This document shows, piece after piece, positions 10,889-63,614 of a stretch of DNA of 64,000 bases. The stretch comes from Candidatus Pseudothioglobus singularis PS1 (GTDB taxonomy: Bacteria > Pseudomonadota > Gammaproteobacteria > PS1 > Pseudothioglobaceae). A program made the position numbers and the translations under genes. Location of the stretch: contig NZ_CP006911.1 in the NCBI RefSeq assembly GCF_001281385.1, positions 1,488,001 through 1,552,000 on the forward strand. Reading direction: 5' to 3'. A model generated the notes under the pieces. It made no database searches and had not been told where the DNA came from. It saw only the letters and a list, made by a program, of their open reading frames with translations. Within the stretch, counting starts at the first letter, position 1. The number at the start of each line of letters is the position of its first letter.

Positions 10889-11326
10889 CTAGGATCTTTG
10901 TAAATCTGCCAACAACTCAATGACATGGCTATACCCATCTGCACCAAGACCAGCAACTACTGCATCCACAGCTGGAGAGACAAAAGAAATATGACGAAAT
11001 GACTCACGTAAATGTGGATTCGAAATATGTAACTCTATCTTCAAGCCAGGAAAAGACTTTAAAGCATCATGAATTGCAATTGATGTATGAGTATAAGCAG
11101 CAGCATTAATGACAATTACATCAATTTTTTCTTTTATTGCGCTCTGAATCCACTCAACTATTTCACCTTCATAATTAGACTGCATAAATTTCACATTATT
11201 GCCATCTTTAAGACCTTGTTCTATGCACTCTTTTGAAATACTATCTAATGTATCATGCCCATAAATCTCGGGCTCGCGCGAGCCAAGTAGGTTTATATTT
11301 GGACCATTGATAACAAAAATATTCAT
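10889..11326 (-). CDS. aroQ: type II 3-dehydroquinate dehydratase
   Basis: Dodecameric flavodoxin-like enzyme that converts 3-dehydroquinate to 3-dehydroshikimate. The catalytic set is complete: NGPNINLLGSREPEIYG with Arg17 and Tyr22, Asn74, YTH His80, ELHISN His100, and Arg107/Arg111 in HLRESFRH. Length (145) is standard. It is not next to accB-accC, its usual place in gammaproteobacteria. Instead it overlaps by four bases a degenerate paralogue upstream and lies at the end of a run of oxygenase genes. It may be the cell's shikimate-pathway enzyme or one recruited to a catabolic route. Confidence 0.92.
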   Translation of the reverse strand: MNIFVINGPNINLLGSREPEIYGHDTLDSISKECIEQGLKDGNNVKFMQSNYEGEIVEWIQSAIKEKIDVIVINAAAYTHTSIAIHDALKSFPGLKIELHISNPHLRESFRHISFVSPAVDAVVAGLGADGYSHVIELLADLQRS

Positions 11327-11793
11327 GATTTTTGACTCAACTGCTTATTGACTGCTCTAATAGCAAGATCATAGCTATGGATACCAAATCCACTTACAAA
11401 ACCAACATTCCCTTCCGAAGCCTTTATTGGACTATTAATATTAACTCCCTTCTGGAAAATATTTGCAATATGCACCTCAATAACTGGCTTTTTTTGATTA
11501 GCCATGGCCTCTATATTAGATGCGTATAGATCGGGGTCTAAAGAGGCTGCATTGGAATAAGCAGCAGGATTAATTATTAAAGCATCAAACTCCTTAGAGG
11601 CCTTTAAAAGATAGTTTGATAACTCAGCCTGATCATCAGTTTGACAAAAATCCACACTAATCCCTAAACTATCGCAAGTTTCTAAACATTTTTTTTGGAC
11701 CTTTTCCAAAGTAAGGTTATCATGGCCGAATTCATTAAAGTTGCTCAAATCTGAAAGCCCAGGGCCATTGATTATTAATAATTTTTTTTTCAT
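11323..11793 (-). CDS. degenerate AroQ-like protein, probably not a dehydroquinate dehydratase
   Basis: A 156-residue paralogue of the following aroQ with the same fold signatures (INGPGLSDL, LIINPAAYSN, IEVHIAN, VGFVSGFGIHSYDLA). Compared with AroQ the lid arginine is lost, the catalytic tyrosine is Phe22, the histidine after AAY is Asn81, and both arginines after the HIAN motif are missing. Asn75 and His108 remain. Classical dehydratase chemistry is therefore unlikely. The open frame, clean start and four-base overlap with intact aroQ argue for a working protein, perhaps a partner subunit or an enzyme with another substrate. It lies 86 bases after the HD oxygenase gene. Confidence 0.8.
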   Translation of the reverse strand: MKKKLLIINGPGLSDLSNFNEFGHDNLTLEKVQKKCLETCDSLGISVDFCQTDDQAELSNYLLKASKEFDALIINPAAYSNAASLDPDLYASNIEAMANQKKPVIEVHIANIFQKGVNINSPIKASEGNVGFVSGFGIHSYDLAIRAVNKQLSQKS

Positions 11794-11879: not shown

Positions 11880-12446
11880 CTAAATATTACTGATTAATTG
11901 AGCCTCAATTAAAGACCGATAGTATGAAAATGGTGGACATTGCTTGTTCGGGTCTTTAGCTTCTTCATCCCAGTGGCGCAGATTGACACACTGCTCTAAA
12001 TAGTCATTTTTTTCAAACTCTCTCACCTCATACTCACTCATTGGACCTCCTTGAAGATTCAAGGTGTGGATTGAGGCTGATGAGAGAAGTTCAAAATAAT
12101 CAGGTTGAACTGCGCAAAGATATCGCTTTGCAGAGACATGCTGACGAATTGGCTCAACGACTGATGCCGGAAAATACTCTTCAAGAAAATTAGCACCTGC
12201 CTCTTCATGAAAGTTATTAATACCTTTAACTAATGATGACTCAGGAATTTCATTTTTGTAATGCCCAATATCATGAAGAAGTGCCGCCACAATTTGACTA
12301 TTATCAGCACCCGCTTCTTCAGCACACTGAGCGGCCTGAAGCATGTGCTGTGCCATCGTAACTTCCTCGCCTAAGTAGGACTCAGCACCGCGCCTTTCAA
12401 AAATATCTTCAATAAGATCTAATATATATTCTGGGGTATTAGTCAT
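11880..12446 (-). CDS. HD-domain diiron oxygenase of the PhnZ/TmpB type (phosphonate C-P cleavage)
   Basis: Members of this family oxidise a 1-hydroxyalkylphosphonate with O2 at a mixed-valent Fe(II)/Fe(III) site, releasing phosphate and a carboxylic acid. The residues match PhnZ as I recall it, nearly number for number: Tyr24 and Glu27 of the gating loop, His34, His58-Asp59, His80, then His103, Lys107 (AKRYL) and Asp160, each one lower than in PhnZ. The LQGGPMSEYE segment near 131-140 is also family-like. The start overlaps the end of the 2-oxoglutarate oxygenase gene by eight bases. The family call is firm; the exact substrate, such as hydroxylated trimethylaminoethylphosphonate, is inferred from the neighbour. 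Confidence 0.85.
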   Translation of the reverse strand: MTNTPEYILDLIEDIFERRGAESYLGEEVTMAQHMLQAAQCAEEAGADNSQIVAALLHDIGHYKNEIPESSLVKGINNFHEEAGANFLEEYFPASVVEPIRQHVSAKRYLCAVQPDYFELLSSASIHTLNLQGGPMSEYEVREFEKNDYLEQCVNLRHWDEEAKDPNKQCPPFSYYRSLIEAQLISNI

Positions 12447-13539
12447 TATTATTTTTCATTTCTAGCCTGTTAAGAAGACTATAAAGGCCATCCAAATCAG
12501 AATATGCACCCTGCAGATGGCGTTTTCCAGATTTAGAGAATTCTGTTCTAGCATGCATCACTCGAGTATTATCAAAAAGCATTAAATCGCCCTCAGATAG
12601 CTTGAATTGAATCTTTAATTCATCCCTCTCAATGATCTCACTCCAGTGACGGTATGCCTTATAAAAAGACCTCATTTTATCTTGAGGCACATTGATCGTA
12701 TCGATTGAACGGTTGTTGTATCTAACCTTGATAACTTCTTTTTTATCATTTAAGTCAATCATCGGTACCCTTGAGCGAAGCTCAGTTTTACTATCTGAAA
12801 AGCGATAATTAATCCAGGTATTTGCTAAGGATAGAAAGTTCTCTTGACTCTCTTCTCGAAGAATAGATGCGGCTTTAAAACCATCAACCAAAATTGACTC
12901 TCCGCCCTCAGTAGAGCTCTCAAGGCAATGCAGTAATTGCACTGTTGGAACAGGATCCCTGTAAGGATTATCTGTGTGAGAGCCAAGCCCGAGATTGGTA
13001 AAGGCAAGGTTATTTGGGTTGACCTCTGTTCTTACCTCAAACAAAGCCCCATAGTTTGTCTCTCTAGTGAACCCCAACTCACTAATCACTTTCAACACTT
13101 GGCCGTCTTGGGTTGGAACGTCATTTAAAACAAAGAAACCATACTCTCTAAGCGACCTAAGCGCTAAGACCTTTGAAGTATCATCAGAATGCATCAAGTC
13201 ATAGCTGATAAAAGGAAGTCCATTATCAAAGCTATCTTTTTTCCATAATTTTTTGGACTTTTCGCTCCTATCCTCGAAATGACTGTTGAGTTCATAGCAG
13301 TTTTCCCTGAGCCACTTCTGACAAAAGACTGACAAGTGATTTTCAGGTTGAAACATCACGCAAACATTTCCCTCAGCATCCTTGTAAGCCTTTTCAATAG
13401 TAATATTAGAGGGCAGATCTTTAACGCTAAATAGTCTTTGCCCATTATCTAAGTTTCTTGATTCAGGCATCTGACAGTGGTCTCTTAGCCAAAGACTATA
13501 AAGAGAGCTTTTATTTCCATCACTCCAATCTATGACCAA
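12439..13539 (-). CDS. gamma-butyrobetaine-hydroxylase-like Fe(II)/2-oxoglutarate dioxygenase, TmpA-like
   Basis: It has the two-domain layout of the BBOX/TMLH group: an N-terminal DUF971-like domain (VIDWSDG, LWLRDHC) and a TauD-type core. Iron ligands are His188 and Asp190 (GSHTDN) and His329 (RVMHART), with Arg340 placed to bind 2-oxoglutarate. The cysteine cluster that binds zinc in many relatives is mostly gone (only WLRDHC remains). Known members hydroxylate gamma-butyrobetaine, trimethyllysine or 2-(trimethylammonio)ethylphosphonate (TmpA). The overlap with a PhnZ/TmpB-type gene favours the last, giving glycine betaine and phosphate overall. The start is uncertain: TTG at 13539, or a non-ATG codon near 13578 behind a strong ribosome-binding site. 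Confidence 0.85.
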   Translation of the reverse strand: MVIDWSDGNKSSLYSLWLRDHCQMPESRNLDNGQRLFSVKDLPSNITIEKAYKDAEGNVCVMFQPENHLSVFCQKWLRENCYELNSHFEDRSEKSKKLWKKDSFDNGLPFISYDLMHSDDTSKVLALRSLREYGFFVLNDVPTQDGQVLKVISELGFTRETNYGALFEVRTEVNPNNLAFTNLGLGSHTDNPYRDPVPTVQLLHCLESSTEGGESILVDGFKAASILREESQENFLSLANTWINYRFSDSKTELRSRVPMIDLNDKKEVIKVRYNNRSIDTINVPQDKMRSFYKAYRHWSEIIERDELKIQFKLSEGDLMLFDNTRVMHARTEFSKSGKRHLQGAYSDLDGLYSLLNRLEMKNNND

Positions 13540-13613
13540 CTCATCACCGACTATAGAAATTATTTTGATTAAATCGATTTGTGTCCCCTTTGATAATCTA
13601 GCTTTAAGTTTTT

Positions 13614-14504
13614 TTACATTGCAATATTTTTACTTTTGGATTGCTGTCCAAAAAAGGAAACCTCTTTTGGGTATTCTGGCAACTCGATACTATAGCTAGT
13701 ACACCTCACGGTACCAGTCTCTTTACCCCTGACAACCATACCAACTAGATCACTTGGGAGGTGGTTTGGAGAGAGTGCAACTGCATCCTCAGCTTTATAG
13801 GTAATGATGAATAATGATCTTGGCAGTGAAGATCGGTTTGGTGCTGAACCATGCAGCAATTTTGAATGCATAAGGCAAGCTGAACCTGCTTTACCAATAC
13901 AACTTAACGCATTTTTTTTATTTTCAGATACAACATTTTCAGCAACAGCTCCAGTAAAAATGCCCTTATGCCAATGAGAGTGTAGTGGCCCATTATGGGT
14001 TCCAGGAACAACCTCAAGCGGCCCGTTTTCAAGGGTCACATCATCTAAAAAATAAAGAACAGTCATAATATCTTCATTGGAATGAGGCTCAAAAGGAAAG
14101 TCCTGATGGAACTTCACCTCAGTGCCTGAGCCGGGCAACTTGAGATTTATTTTATTGCCAAGGTGTGTGATATTTGGTCCAAATATCTCAGTCACCAGAT
14201 CCAATGCATTGTTATCTTTTACCACGTCAAGGCATATCTCCGAAATTTCTGCTGGTGATGTGATCCTTCTCACTGCTGGTGTGCTTTCAGAATGAGTTTT
14301 AGGCTCAATATCAAATCGAGGCCTTCCATCCTTTATCTTTCCAAAAGGCTTTTTGTGGCTTTTACTTTCATCAACCCAGCTGGCAAGCTCAGCATTAAGT
14401 GATACTAATTGCTCACTGGTAATTGCATTTTCAAAGAAAATATAGCCATCTCGATGAAATTGATCAATCAGTTCTTTGTTGTCAGACTCATTTTTTACTT
14501 GCAT
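13614..14504 (-). CDS. phytanoyl-CoA dioxygenase (PhyH) family Fe(II)/2-oxoglutarate oxygenase
   Basis: Double-stranded beta-helix hydroxylase of 296 residues. Iron ligands are His133 and Asp135 (KFHQDFPF) and His218 (KLLHGSAPN), with Arg229 (LPRS) for 2-oxoglutarate. The ENGPLEVVPGTH motif is at about 159-170. Relatives include ectoine hydroxylase and the aminoethylphosphonate hydroxylase PhnY, but nothing here fixes the substrate. The ATG at 14504 is chosen for its AGGAGG site six bases upstream. It is the first gene of the minus-strand run leading to the TmpA-like and HD oxygenases, 74 bases before the former, so a related small methylated or phosphonate substrate is plausible. Confidence 0.88.
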   Translation of the reverse strand: MQVKNESDNKELIDQFHRDGYIFFENAITSEQLVSLNAELASWVDESKSHKKPFGKIKDGRPRFDIEPKTHSESTPAVRRITSPAEISEICLDVVKDNNALDLVTEIFGPNITHLGNKINLKLPGSGTEVKFHQDFPFEPHSNEDIMTVLYFLDDVTLENGPLEVVPGTHNGPLHSHWHKGIFTGAVAENVVSENKKNALSCIGKAGSACLMHSKLLHGSAPNRSSLPRSLFIITYKAEDAVALSPNHLPSDLVGMVVRGKETGTVRCTSYSIELPEYPKEVSFFGQQSKSKNIAM

Positions 14505-14594
14505 ACATAGCCTCCTAAGGGCATTATGAACCAAAATTAAGAAAAAATAAAGAAAAATTTAATGGCCTATTAGAAAGAATATAAAATTATCTAC

Positions 14595-61642: not shown

Positions 61643-62923
61643 CTAAGCACTAAAAATACCTTTGAGTGTAAAGAAAAACAAGATCGACATTATTGCTCCA
61701 GCTGGCAATGTAATTAACCAAGATAGAAATATTCTATTAACAACTCTCAGGTTCAATGATGCTACGCCCCTTGCAATACCCACACCAAGAACAGCACCAA
61801 CAAGTACCTGAGTTGTTGAAACTGGAAGCCCCGTATAAGAGGCAAATACTACTGTTGTTGCAGCGGCAAGTTCAGCAGAAAAACCTCTACTTGGCGTTAG
61901 CTCAGTAATATTTTTACCGATCGTTTTCATTACTCTAAAACCAAAGGTTGCAAGACCAAAGACGATTCCACCACCACCTACTAACAATATCCATGAAGGG
62001 AGTGCGCTTTTTGAAACAATTTGCCCGCCCGACTCAACAATACTATAGACCGCAGCTAATGGGCCAATTGCATTTGCAACATCATTTGATCCATGAGCAA
62101 AAGCCATTGAGCAAGCTGTAATTACCATCAGTCCGCCAAATAGTTTCTCCATATTTGCATAGGAGAACTCATTATCATCTTCGGGGTTGGTTTTAATTCG
62201 CCTAATAATAATTGCGGCAATGATGGCTGCAAGAATTCCAACTAAAGTTGCAATCATCATGCTTGTTGGAAGGTCCTTACCGAGATGTTTTAAAGAGTCA
62301 ACATGCTTGAGTCCTTTTAATAGAGTGACCAATGAGAGGACAAATCCTACAAAAAAAACGTAGAAAGGGAGGTATTTTTTTGCATTTTCAAGTGGCTGCT
62401 CTGTATCTATTACTAGGCGCTGTAAGCTTTTAAATATCAAAATAGCCATTGTTCCTGCAATAAGTGGTGAGACCACCCAACTTGCAATAATGGCATACAC
62501 TTTATCCCATGATACAGCCTCTATACCAACTCCAACTGCTCCAAAACCAACGATTGCACCAACGATTGAGTGTGTTGTGGATACTGGCCAACCAAGAGAT
62601 GAGGCAATTAAAAGCCAAGTCGCTGCAGCCAATAGAGATGCAAGCATTCCATATACTAATAATTCTGGATTATTTGTAAATGCTCCTGCATCAAGAATAC
62701 CTTTACGGACAGTTGCAGTGACCTCTCCACCAGCCAAAACAGCTCCTGCAAATTCGAAAATGACTGCGATAATGACAGCCTGTTTGAAAGTTATAGCACC
62801 AGAGCCAACAGAAGTCCCCATTGCGTTTGCAACATCATTGGCACCAATGCCCCAGGCCATAAACAGGCCAAATCCAATAGCCAACATGATAAGAATATCT
62901 CTATTTTGAACGATAATTTCCAT
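61643..62923 (-). CDS. inorganic phosphate transporter, Pit family
   Basis: Inner-membrane low-affinity phosphate (and arsenate) symporter. The duplicated motif GANDVANAMGTSVGSGAITF and HGSNDVANAIGPLAAV is diagnostic, with about ten transmembrane segments in 426 residues. It follows its PhoU-like partner by 10 bases. The nearby arsC-like fragment fits with entry of arsenate through such transporters. Confidence 0.94.
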   Translation of the reverse strand: MEIIVQNRDILIMLAIGFGLFMAWGIGANDVANAMGTSVGSGAITFKQAVIIAVIFEFAGAVLAGGEVTATVRKGILDAGAFTNNPELLVYGMLASLLAAATWLLIASSLGWPVSTTHSIVGAIVGFGAVGVGIEAVSWDKVYAIIASWVVSPLIAGTMAILIFKSLQRLVIDTEQPLENAKKYLPFYVFFVGFVLSLVTLLKGLKHVDSLKHLGKDLPTSMMIATLVGILAAIIAAIIIRRIKTNPEDDNEFSYANMEKLFGGLMVITACSMAFAHGSNDVANAIGPLAAVYSIVESGGQIVSKSALPSWILLVGGGGIVFGLATFGFRVMKTIGKNITELTPSRGFSAELAAATTVVFASYTGLPVSTTQVLVGAVLGVGIARGVASLNLRVVNRIFLSWLITLPAGAIMSILFFFTLKGIFSA

Positions 62924-62933
62924 TGTTAGCCCC

Positions 62934-63614
62934 CTACTTTGTCAACATAACTTCAAAACGCGATCCAACCTTTTGGGCAGCATCAGCAGTCTCACCAAGC
63001 CACTCTATGGCTCGATAATAAAACATTACATCTATAGGTGGTAATTCGGCCTCAAGCAGATAAAGCTTTTTTCTAATAATTTCTTGAGCAACATCTGTCT
63101 CATGTTCCAATTCGTTGACTTTCTTAATCATCTTGTCAACAATTTTTCGCTCTCTAGAACTAAACGCAGTCTCTAAGAGCTCATCCAATTCATTAATTGC
63201 AACCAAGGCGGCCGCTGAAGTTTTAATGCATAGCTTAGATAATTCTAAAAAGTCTTCTGCAAACGCTTTTGGAAAGTGCATTTTTCTCGACATCATCAAG
63301 CCTGAAAGGTCTTTTGTAATGTTGGCAATAGAGTCCTGAATTAGCAAAACATCCAGTAAATCCCTTCTAGAGAAAGGCATCATAAATGTACTTGGCAAAT
63401 TCATTCTTAGTTTTTTCTTAAGAACATCTGCTTTCTGTTCTTTTTTGCCAATTGATAGATGAGCTGATTGAGCCTTTTCCCAATCTTCAGTATTAGCCGC
63501 TTTAGCAAAAACTCCAAACTCTTTTAAGCATGAATGAACCTGTTTCATGTGCTGCTGTAATGGGCTTATTGGTGACTTTCCAAATAGGCTAGTTATGTTG
63601 TCTTTTCCAGTCAT
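62934..63614 (-). CDS. DUF47/PhoU-like regulator of the Pit transporter
   Basis: A 226-residue all-helical protein of the TIGR00153 (DUF47) family, related to PhoU. DVLLIQDSIANITKDLSGLM and NELEHETDVAQEIIRKKLY are family-like. It almost always pairs with a pit gene, as here. Probably regulates or gates the transporter. Confidence 0.92.
   Translation of the reverse strand: MTGKDNITSLFGKSPISPLQQHMKQVHSCLKEFGVFAKAANTEDWEKAQSAHLSIGKKEQKADVLKKKLRMNLPSTFMMPFSRRDLLDVLLIQDSIANITKDLSGLMMSRKMHFPKAFAEDFLELSKLCIKTSAAALVAINELDELLETAFSSRERKIVDKMIKKVNELEHETDVAQEIIRKKLYLLEAELPPIDVMFYYRAIEWLGETADAAQKVGSRFEVMLTK

What the first reader, a model, noticed from the sequence alone, without database searches (positions are those of the whole stretch)
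11880..13578. TmpA/TmpB-like phosphonate oxidation pair: an overlapping 2-oxoglutarate hydroxylase and PhnZ-type HD oxygenase
Seen: a BBOX-type oxygenase (His188, Asp190, His329, Arg340) overlaps by eight bases a 188-residue HD protein that keeps Tyr24, Glu27, His34, His58-Asp59, His80, His103, Lys107 and Asp160. Known: TmpA/TmpB convert 2-(trimethylammonio)ethylphosphonate to glycine betaine and phosphate; PhnY/PhnZ do the like for aminoethylphosphonate. Inference: this organism scavenges phosphate from a quaternary-amine phosphonate without C-P lyase. No phosphonate transporter is in the window.
Basis: partly seen in the sequence, partly recalled or inferred. Interest (0 to 1): 0.8.

Follow-up and report, generated by a model that had tools for sequence, protein, structure and literature searches.

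The report
Sister version of phosphonate-cutting enzyme pair
A widespread kind of ocean bacterium carries two neighbouring oxygen-using enzymes that most likely break a betaine-like phosphonate into phosphate and glycine betaine, and the first of the two genes appears to begin at an unusual AUC start codon that its closest relatives mostly share.

Summary
The pair is real: a GBBH/TmpA-type 2-oxoglutarate hydroxylase (12439-13578, - strand) overlaps by 8 bases a 188-aa HD protein (11880-12446). Genome length (1,714,148 bp) equals that of "Ca. Thioglobus singularis" PS1. Closest solved proteins are TmpA (44% identity) and TmpB (49%). Trees place both proteins beside, not inside, the TmpA and TmpB clades. 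TmpA pocket positions are kept at 8 of 9 sites compared. In three related genomes the two enzymes are fused. The HD protein misses the curated TmpB cut-off (250 vs 300 bits), so it is not filed as TmpB. No PhnJ, PhnD-type or PstS protein was found genome-wide; betaine binding proteins and a betaine methyltransferase were. Most likely the pair turns a trimethylammonio-type phosphonate into phosphate and glycine betaine; the substrate is inferred. Unexpected: the hydroxylase seems to start at an AUC codon behind a Shine-Dalgarno-like sequence; in 10 of 24 orthologues this site replaces ATG (9 ATC, 1 ATA), and coding-type conservation begins there. A PhyH oxygenase gene lies 35 bp upstream; its role is open.

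The parts
11880..12446 (-). TmpB-type HD-domain oxygenase (188 aa)
   Evidence: H..HD..H..H..D plus YxxE; NF049941 250 bits (cut-off 300 not met); in one clade with TmpB
12439..13578 (-). TmpA-type Fe(II)/2-oxoglutarate hydroxylase, 379 aa from the AUC start
   Evidence: NF049936 428.3 (cut-off 400 met), TIGR02409 471.3 (cut-off 414.75 met), 44% identical to TmpA, pocket kept at 8 of 9 sites
12439..12446 (-). 8-base overlap of the two genes (translational coupling inferred)
13576..13578 (-). proposed AUC start codon of the hydroxylase
   Evidence: ATC in 9 and ATA in 1 of the 10 orthologues without an in-frame ATG; frame conservation begins here
13585..13591 (-). Shine-Dalgarno-like AAAGGGG, 6 nt before the AUC
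13614..14534 (-). PhyH-family Fe(II)/2-oxoglutarate oxygenase, 35 nt upstream of the AUC; probable operon partner, substrate unknown

Best explanation
The two genes encode a two-step oxidative phosphonate pathway of the TmpA/TmpB type, in a sister subfamily of the characterised enzymes. The TmpA-type enzyme uses Fe(II), O2 and 2-oxoglutarate to hydroxylate C1 of a quaternary-amine phosphonate, most likely 2-(trimethylammonio)ethylphosphonate; the mixed-valent di-iron HD enzyme then cleaves the C-P bond with O2, giving phosphate and glycine betaine. Betaine is then demethylated through betaine-homocysteine methyltransferase and dimethylglycine/sarcosine-type dehydrogenases, so the pair feeds both phosphorus and methylated-amine carbon and nitrogen. 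Uptake may be through betaine-type ABC transporters. The hydroxylase is translated from an AUC start codon. Shown: families, motifs, phylogeny, fusion in relatives, context. Inferred: substrate, products, uptake, start codon use, physiological purpose.
For: Best PDB hits by sequence are TmpA 6npb (E=3.9e-94) and TmpB 6npa (E=2.7e-52; PhnZ 1.6e-33); 44% identity to TmpA vs 30% to human GBBH; the structure model is nearest 6npb, Z 36.1 vs 32.7 for human GBBH. HD tree: window-family clade (22 rows, 100/99) and TmpB lie within 85 rows (97/93), PhnZ outside; 77 of the 83 locus rows in those 85 have a TmpA-type gene in the fetched flank (in L086 on the other strand). Hydroxylase tree: window and TmpA in a 74-row clade (SH-aLRT 82), 18 other homologues plus human GBBH outside; 14 of those 18 show no HD match in the fetched stretch, 4 show weak ones (see evidence against). 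Pocket: Y176, F180, N190, N204, N288, N289, R290, Y359 equal TmpA; only F193 replaces Tyr, as in 19 of 45 TmpA-clade rows. HD: M31 (76 of 82) and M35 (82 of 82) shared by window and TmpB clades, Q31 and A/G35 in 11 of 11 distant relatives. Three genomes (G001, G019, G026) carry a 569-587 aa fusion (domains scanned for G019's). Of 20 relative loci 6 hold a DMGDH-like and 7 a PF02574 methyltransferase gene. Own genome: BHMT 458.9 bits (cut-off 338) and TMAO demethylase 1102.8 (cut-off 1100), four strong OpuAC betaine binding proteins plus one marginal, PhnJ none.
Against: The HD protein misses the curated TmpB cut-off (250 of 300 bits; no match passes it in 77 genomes, own included). The hydroxylase scores higher on the GBBH model (471) than on TmpA (428), the reverse of true TmpA (433 vs 600). 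Support for the HD-linked hydroxylase clade is modest (82), and for the nearest sister relation of the window HD clade weak (88/24). Of the 18 outside hydroxylases, L171, L172, L174 and L175 have weak HD-domain matches nearby (36-48 bits, 24-35% identity), in L174 directly beside the gene on the same strand, so pairing with some HD protein is not unique to the clade; L164 is cut by its contig end. The PF02574 neighbour of relatives misses the BHMT cut-off (87.5 of 338). No phosphonate binding protein of the PhnD family. In PS1 the DMGDH-like orthologue lies about 400 kb away. No biochemical data.
Confidence: 0.72

Rival explanations
1. Same two-step chemistry, but the main substrate is another phosphonate (mono- or dimethylated aminoethylphosphonate, or a longer betaine-like phosphonate), which would explain why the subfamily is separate from TmpA/TmpB.
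For: HD below the TmpB cut-off; separate clades in both trees; fixed differences from the TmpA clade, e.g. Gly186 where TmpA-clade rows have Gln, Asp249 where they have Gly (366-aa numbering).
Against: Eight of nine compared pocket positions equal TmpA; betaine-using neighbours in relatives.
Confidence: 0.17
2. The hydroxylase is a real gamma-butyrobetaine dioxygenase making carnitine, and the HD protein is an unrelated neighbour.
For: Passes the GBBH equivalog cut-off (471.3 vs 414.75) and scores higher there than on the TmpA model.
Against: Characterised TmpA also passes that cut-off (433.4). Conserved pairing across distant species (62 of 80 loci) and fusion with the HD protein. Human GBBH positions W181, Y205 and A294 are F, N and R as in TmpA. 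The genome has a separate trimethyllysine-dioxygenase-type paralogue.
Confidence: 0.05
3. Three-oxygenase module: the PhyH enzyme is a second hydroxylase (PhnY plays this part in AEP oxidation) that feeds the same HD enzyme with another hydroxyphosphonate.
For: PhyH sits 35 nt upstream in the window and in the same locus in 16 of 20 relatives (one other gene between them in L028 and L037); its HxD...H...R residues are kept; L087 has an HD protein in the TmpB-type clade beside a PhyH gene (26% over 167 aa) with no TmpA hit.
Against: PhyH is only distantly related to the methylphosphonate hydroxylase model (30.8 of 500 bits) and its model is nearest to amino-acid and ectoine hydroxylases. In G001 and G019, with fused TmpAB, PhyH lies elsewhere without them; G026, also fused, gave no PhyH match; in L022 a pirin gene takes its place.
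Confidence: 0.06

Closest known systems
TmpA/TmpB of Leisingera caerulea (PDB 6npa-6npd; Rajakovich 2019, seen here only through passages of PMC8177086 and PMC10574752)
   Same: Hydroxylase plus HD oxygenase encoded side by side; 44% and 49% identity; Fe/2OG ligands, pocket residues, YxxE loop, di-iron ligands.
   Different: Sister clades in both trees; HD below the TmpB cut-off; PhyH gene upstream; AUC start; fused into one protein in three related genomes. Two alphaproteobacterial plasmid copies looked at have a LysR gene beside the pair; the window has none.
PhnY/PhnZ (2-aminoethylphosphonate) and PhnY*/PhnZ1 (methylphosphonate)
   Same: Same two-step logic and same HD oxygenase site.
   Different: Their hydroxylase is PhyH-type (recalled), not GBBH-type; the window HD scores 204.4 (Phn-HD, cut-off 214.6) and 156.1 (PhnZ1, cut-off 300); M31/M35 instead of Q31/S35 of PhnZ.
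PhoF, fungal PhnY-PhnZ fusion (Fonsecaea multimorphosa; passage of PMC10574752)
   Same: Hydroxylase and HD lyase in one chain, as in relatives L024-L026.
   Different: Those are bacterial and join a GBBH/TmpA-type hydroxylase; the window pair is not fused.
Human gamma-butyrobetaine dioxygenase (BBOX1)
   Same: Fold, N-terminal domain, Fe/2OG ligands, part of the aromatic cage.
   Different: 30% identity; F, N, R at the W181, Y205, A294 positions; HD partner.

Membership tests
TmpA (2-trimethylaminoethylphosphonate dioxygenase, NF049936) | curated HMM cut-off 400 bits | tested here: met
   428.3 bits; TIGR02409 also met at 471.3, as a true TmpA fragment meets it at 433.4
TmpA (2-trimethylaminoethylphosphonate dioxygenase, NF049936) | substrate-pocket residues of TmpA | tested here: met
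   8 of 9 compared non-ligand positions identical, the ninth Y to F as in 19 of 45 TmpA-clade rows; roles of positions recalled from human GBBH papers, not from a TmpA complex
TmpA (2-trimethylaminoethylphosphonate dioxygenase, NF049936) | groups inside the TmpA clade | tested here: not met
   own 23-row clade (98) beside the 45-row TmpA clade (100), both in a 74-row clade with support 82
TmpA (2-trimethylaminoethylphosphonate dioxygenase, NF049936) | hydroxylates trimethylammonio-ethylphosphonate at C1 | not testable with these tools
   needs enzyme assay
TmpB (NF049941) | curated HMM cut-off 300 bits | tested here: not met
   250 bits; true TmpB fragment 346.5, PhnZ fragment 141.1
TmpB (NF049941) | di-iron HD ligands, YxxE loop, Lys | tested here: met
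   all nine kept, but in all 102 relatives tallied, so not discriminating
TmpB (NF049941) | tree position with TmpB rather than PhnZ | tested here: met
   85-row clade 97/93 with TmpB, PhnZ outside on a very long branch
PhnZ / phosphonate HD oxygenase (TIGR03276) | curated cut-off 214.6 bits | tested here: not met
   204.4; fragments of PhnZ and TmpB score 189.2 and 201.1, so the cut-off is strict
gamma-butyrobetaine dioxygenase (TIGR02409) | curated cut-off 414.75 bits | tested here: met
   471.3, but not exclusive
gamma-butyrobetaine dioxygenase (TIGR02409) | acts on gamma-butyrobetaine, carnitine pathway | not testable with these tools
   HD partner and fusion argue against it

The most novel reading that the evidence does not exclude
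The hydroxylase is a metabolic enzyme whose AUC start codon has been kept by selection across a clade of marine bacteria, probably to hold hydroxylase output low relative to the ATG-started HD lyase (or to make it depend on initiation-factor levels), while sister species use ATG or fuse the two enzymes in equal amounts. Start codon and fusion would then be alternative ways of setting hydroxylase:lyase stoichiometry in one pathway.
Probability: 0.3. Interest if true: 0.65.

Novelty: new variant of a known kind. Interest (0 to 1): 0.5.

Why it matters
The HD gene is in 23 of 29 searched genomes of the genus to which PS1 belongs, a cultured member of a clade described as ubiquitous in the ocean (PMC4616169), and no copy found there reaches the curated TmpB cut-off, so surveys using that cut-off would miss it. 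If the activity is right, these bacteria turn betaine-like phosphonates into phosphate and glycine betaine, linking the marine phosphorus redox cycle with methylated-amine use in an organism in which no Pst-type phosphate binding protein was found. The shared AUC start gives a natural test of non-AUG initiation in a streamlined marine bacterium.

Tried and rejected
GBBH/carnitine reading: kept only as a weak rival. Viral carriage: no relative found in viral contigs. PhyH role: sequence, fold and neighbourhood gave only generic PhyH relatives and no common theme among neighbours (model pLDDT 71.7, last 57 residues under 50). PstS: the one sub-threshold match is a LysR-type domain (matched piece only). 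Promoter and terminator scan: no clear excess over shuffles (10 vs mean 10.7; 4 vs mean 2.6). Insert in L028 between PhyH and hydroxylase: looks like a peptidase by eye (no family search). A short out-of-frame ATG before the AUC in L023, L027, L032, L035 and L189 was considered as a frameshift start; it is missing in the window, L031 and L036, so rejected. Literature searched for earlier reports: (held open-access library only; most listed papers were not opened). The original TmpA/TmpB and PhnZ papers are not held.

Rows dropped before the hydroxylase tree (107 rows reduced to 93, recounted): twelve near-duplicates (L041_5858, L059, L062, L064, L068, L069, L070, L073, L074, L092, L093, L096) and two short ones (the cut-off paralogue in L025; L161, a further hydroxylase-HD pair whose hydroxylase frame is broken early). 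The outside homologues come from a gammaproteobacterial sample plus paralogues in L024, L026 and L041. L041 and L024 are the same genome, so the same sequences count twice there. In the residue tables L086 and L116 were left out. One search was capped: 161 relatives confirmed, 80 kept. The hydroxylase tree used the quick method only.

Full report
What is there. On the minus strand lie a PhyH-family oxygenase (13614-14534), a GBBH/TmpA-type hydroxylase and an HD-domain protein (11880-12446), the last two overlapping by 8 bases. The genome holding the window is one contig of 1,714,148 bases, the exact length given for "Candidatus Thioglobus singularis" PS1 (PMC4616169, whole text read); I take it to be that organism.

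Family evidence. Pfam gives HD, TauD plus GBBH-like_N, and PhyH. Against curated NCBIfam models the hydroxylase passes TmpA (428.3 of 400) and also gamma-butyrobetaine dioxygenase (471.3 of 414.75); the HD protein has TmpB as best model but misses the cut-off (250 of 300), and also misses Phn-HD (204.4 of 214.6) and PhnZ1 (156.1 of 300). As a yardstick I scored fragments of the solved proteins: TmpA gives 600 and 433 on the same two hydroxylase models, TmpB 346 and PhnZ 141 on the TmpB model. So neither window protein is a typical TmpA or TmpB, yet the HD protein is much nearer to TmpB than PhnZ is. By sequence the nearest solved structures are TmpA and TmpB; identity is 44% to TmpA against 30% to human GBBH and 49% to TmpB. 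The predicted hydroxylase structure (mean pLDDT 84.0, pTM 0.72) matches TmpA at Z 36.1 (rmsd 7.7, 366 residues) and human GBBH at Z 32.7 (rmsd 7.4, 365 residues).

Phylogeny. The HD tree (103 rows) puts the window with 21 others of its family (100/99) inside an 85-row clade (97/93) that holds characterised TmpB; PhnZ is outside on a very long branch. The nearest sister relation is weak (88/24). In the hydroxylase tree (93 rows, quick method) the window clade with Marinomonas MED121 and L066 (23 rows, 98), the TmpA clade (45 rows, 100), a Streptomyces-type clade (4 rows, 100) and two single rows fall together (74 rows, support 82), while 18 other homologues and human GBBH lie outside. Of those 18, 14 show no HD match in the fetched stretch; L171, L172, L174 and L175 show weak ones (36-48 bits; L174's lies directly beside the gene on the same strand), and L164 is cut by its contig end. 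Of the 83 locus rows in the 85-row HD clade, 77 have a TmpA-type gene in the fetched flank (in L086 on the other strand); L048, L052, L087, L090, L094 and L105 do not. Over all 80 named loci the count is 62 of 80.

Residues. Near them M31 and M35 are shared by the TmpB and window clades (76 and 82 of 82) against Q31 and A/G35 in 11 of 11 distant relatives; the five Streptomyces-type rows have Q (3) or M (2) at 31. In the hydroxylase eight of nine compared non-ligand pocket positions equal TmpA, and the ninth (Tyr to Phe) varies within the TmpA clade itself; the roles of these positions are recalled from the human GBBH literature, and window numbers count from the AUC. 22 columns are at least 90% conserved in the 72 HD-linked proteins and at most 35% in the 18 others, though relatedness alone could give part of this.

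Fusion and context. In G001, G019 and G026 one frame of 569-587 codons joins both domains (domain scan of the G019 copy), good evidence that they act in sequence. PhyH lies in the same locus in 16 of 20 relatives, with one gene inserted before the hydroxylase in L028 and L037. Of the 20, 6 hold a dimethylglycine-dehydrogenase-like gene (DAO, FAO_M and GCV_T domains in the L035 copy) and 7 a homocysteine S-methyltransferase-family gene; the latter misses the BHMT cut-off (87.5 of 338). Sneathiella, Roseovarius and Hyphomicrobiales loci also carry the dehydrogenase type (L048, L050, L052, L053, L063: 5 of 80 with long matches, 32-60% identity). In PS1 the dehydrogenase orthologue (84% identical) is elsewhere in the genome, and a betaine-homocysteine methyltransferase (458.9 of 338 bits) and TMAO demethylase (1102.8 of 1100) are present. 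There are four strong betaine-type binding proteins and one marginal, no PhnJ and no PhnD-type protein over the cut-off (best 12.4 of 27 bits). PstS was not found. PhoB gave only a match below cut-off, but that cut-off is reached in just 2 of 14 controls. A Pit-type permease with a PhoU-like partner lies in the window at 61643-63614. This leans against a classical Pho-controlled scavenging system and for a mixed phosphorus and methylated-amine use.

Distribution. Strong or contig-edge TmpB-model matches occur in 23 of 29 genomes of the genus (own included; several are incomplete), in 1 of 20 genomes of other genera of the family, and in none of 28 others of the class (short weak matches not counted). 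PhyH was found in 25 of the same 77 genomes, 24 of them in the genus. Murphy et al. (PMC8316502, passages) report homologues of the methylphosphonate and trimethyl-aminoethylphosphonate PhnZ clades at abundances comparable to phnJ. Lockwood et al. (PMC9381506, passages) have no occurrence of Thioglobus or SUP05 in the main text. Searches for this pathway in SUP05 gave no paper and one that I did not open.

The start codon. Of 24 hydroxylase genes of the family viewed (window, 20 relatives, three), 14 have an in-frame ATG near the expected start and 10 do not: window, L023, L027, L189, L031, L032, L035, L036, L037, L038. At one aligned place these 10 have ATC (9) or ATA (L037). Eight of the 10 have no ATG, GTG or TTG between the preceding stop and this codon; L023 has a TTG 7 codons and L037 a GTG 3 codons upstream. 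The next downstream candidate is TTG 13539 in the window, but only at codon index 30 or 36 in L038, L031 and L036, in or past the first conserved motif. By eye a GGAG- or AAGGG/AAGGT-type sequence precedes the codon in 9 of 10 (not L037). In L038 the frame opens with a stop codon directly before the ATC. Among nine of them (without L038), variable sites by codon position are 5, 2 and 9 in the 13 codons from this codon, and 11, 12 and 12 in the 12 codons before it (the upstream part was compared without gaps, which can inflate its count): coding-type constraint starts there. Of 15 alignment columns with at least 9 of 10 Ile, this one is the most ATC-rich (9 ATC, 1 ATA), though the species are related. 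The structure model has its first strand at residues 4-10, which a TTG start (residue 14) would remove. I hold the AUC start in the window at about 0.85; that the codon is selected for low or regulated output is only a suggestion.

How it most likely works. Hydroxylation at C1, then O2-dependent C-P cleavage, giving phosphate and glycine betaine, as reviewed for TmpA/TmpB (PMC8177086 and PMC10574752, passages). The chemistry type is well supported by homology; the trimethyl substrate is the best guess, not shown.

Noticed in passing
window 13576-13578 and L023, L027, L031, L032, L035, L036, L038, L189: Shared AUC start codon of the hydroxylase (AUA, or a GTG upstream, in L037).
   Followed up: yes
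L024:6625-8376, L025:5929-7692, L026:6464-8173: TmpA-type and TmpB-type domains fused in one bacterial protein, followed by a 432-433-aa gene with only a faint MtaA-like match (scanned in L021); the same gene follows TmpB in L021, L022, L030 and (cut off) L033.
   Followed up: partly
window 61643-63614: Pit-type phosphate permease with PhoU-like (DUF47) partner; no PstS found in the genome.
   Followed up: partly
window 10889-11793: Two adjacent type II dehydroquinase genes; the second (11323-11793) is divergent (84 bits or less, under all curated cut-offs) and may have another function.
   Followed up: no
L157:9087-10205 (own genome): Second GBBH-family paralogue that passes the trimethyllysine dioxygenase cut-off (281.9 of 268.3), next to clp and lptF-type genes; why a bacterium would need it is unclear.
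   Followed up: partly
L037:8330-9118: A HalD-like (halogenase-type) 2OG oxygenase gene inserted between PhyH and the hydroxylase in one species.
   Followed up: no
L087:7001-8300: A TmpB-type HD gene beside a PhyH-type gene with no TmpA hit in the flank, hinting that PhyH enzymes may serve TmpB-type lyases.
   Followed up: no
L174:3399-5100: A weakly PhnZ-like HD gene (24% over 156 aa) directly beside a distant GBBH-family gene on the same strand, with a DMGDH-like gene nearby: possibly another hydroxylase-HD pair.
   Followed up: no
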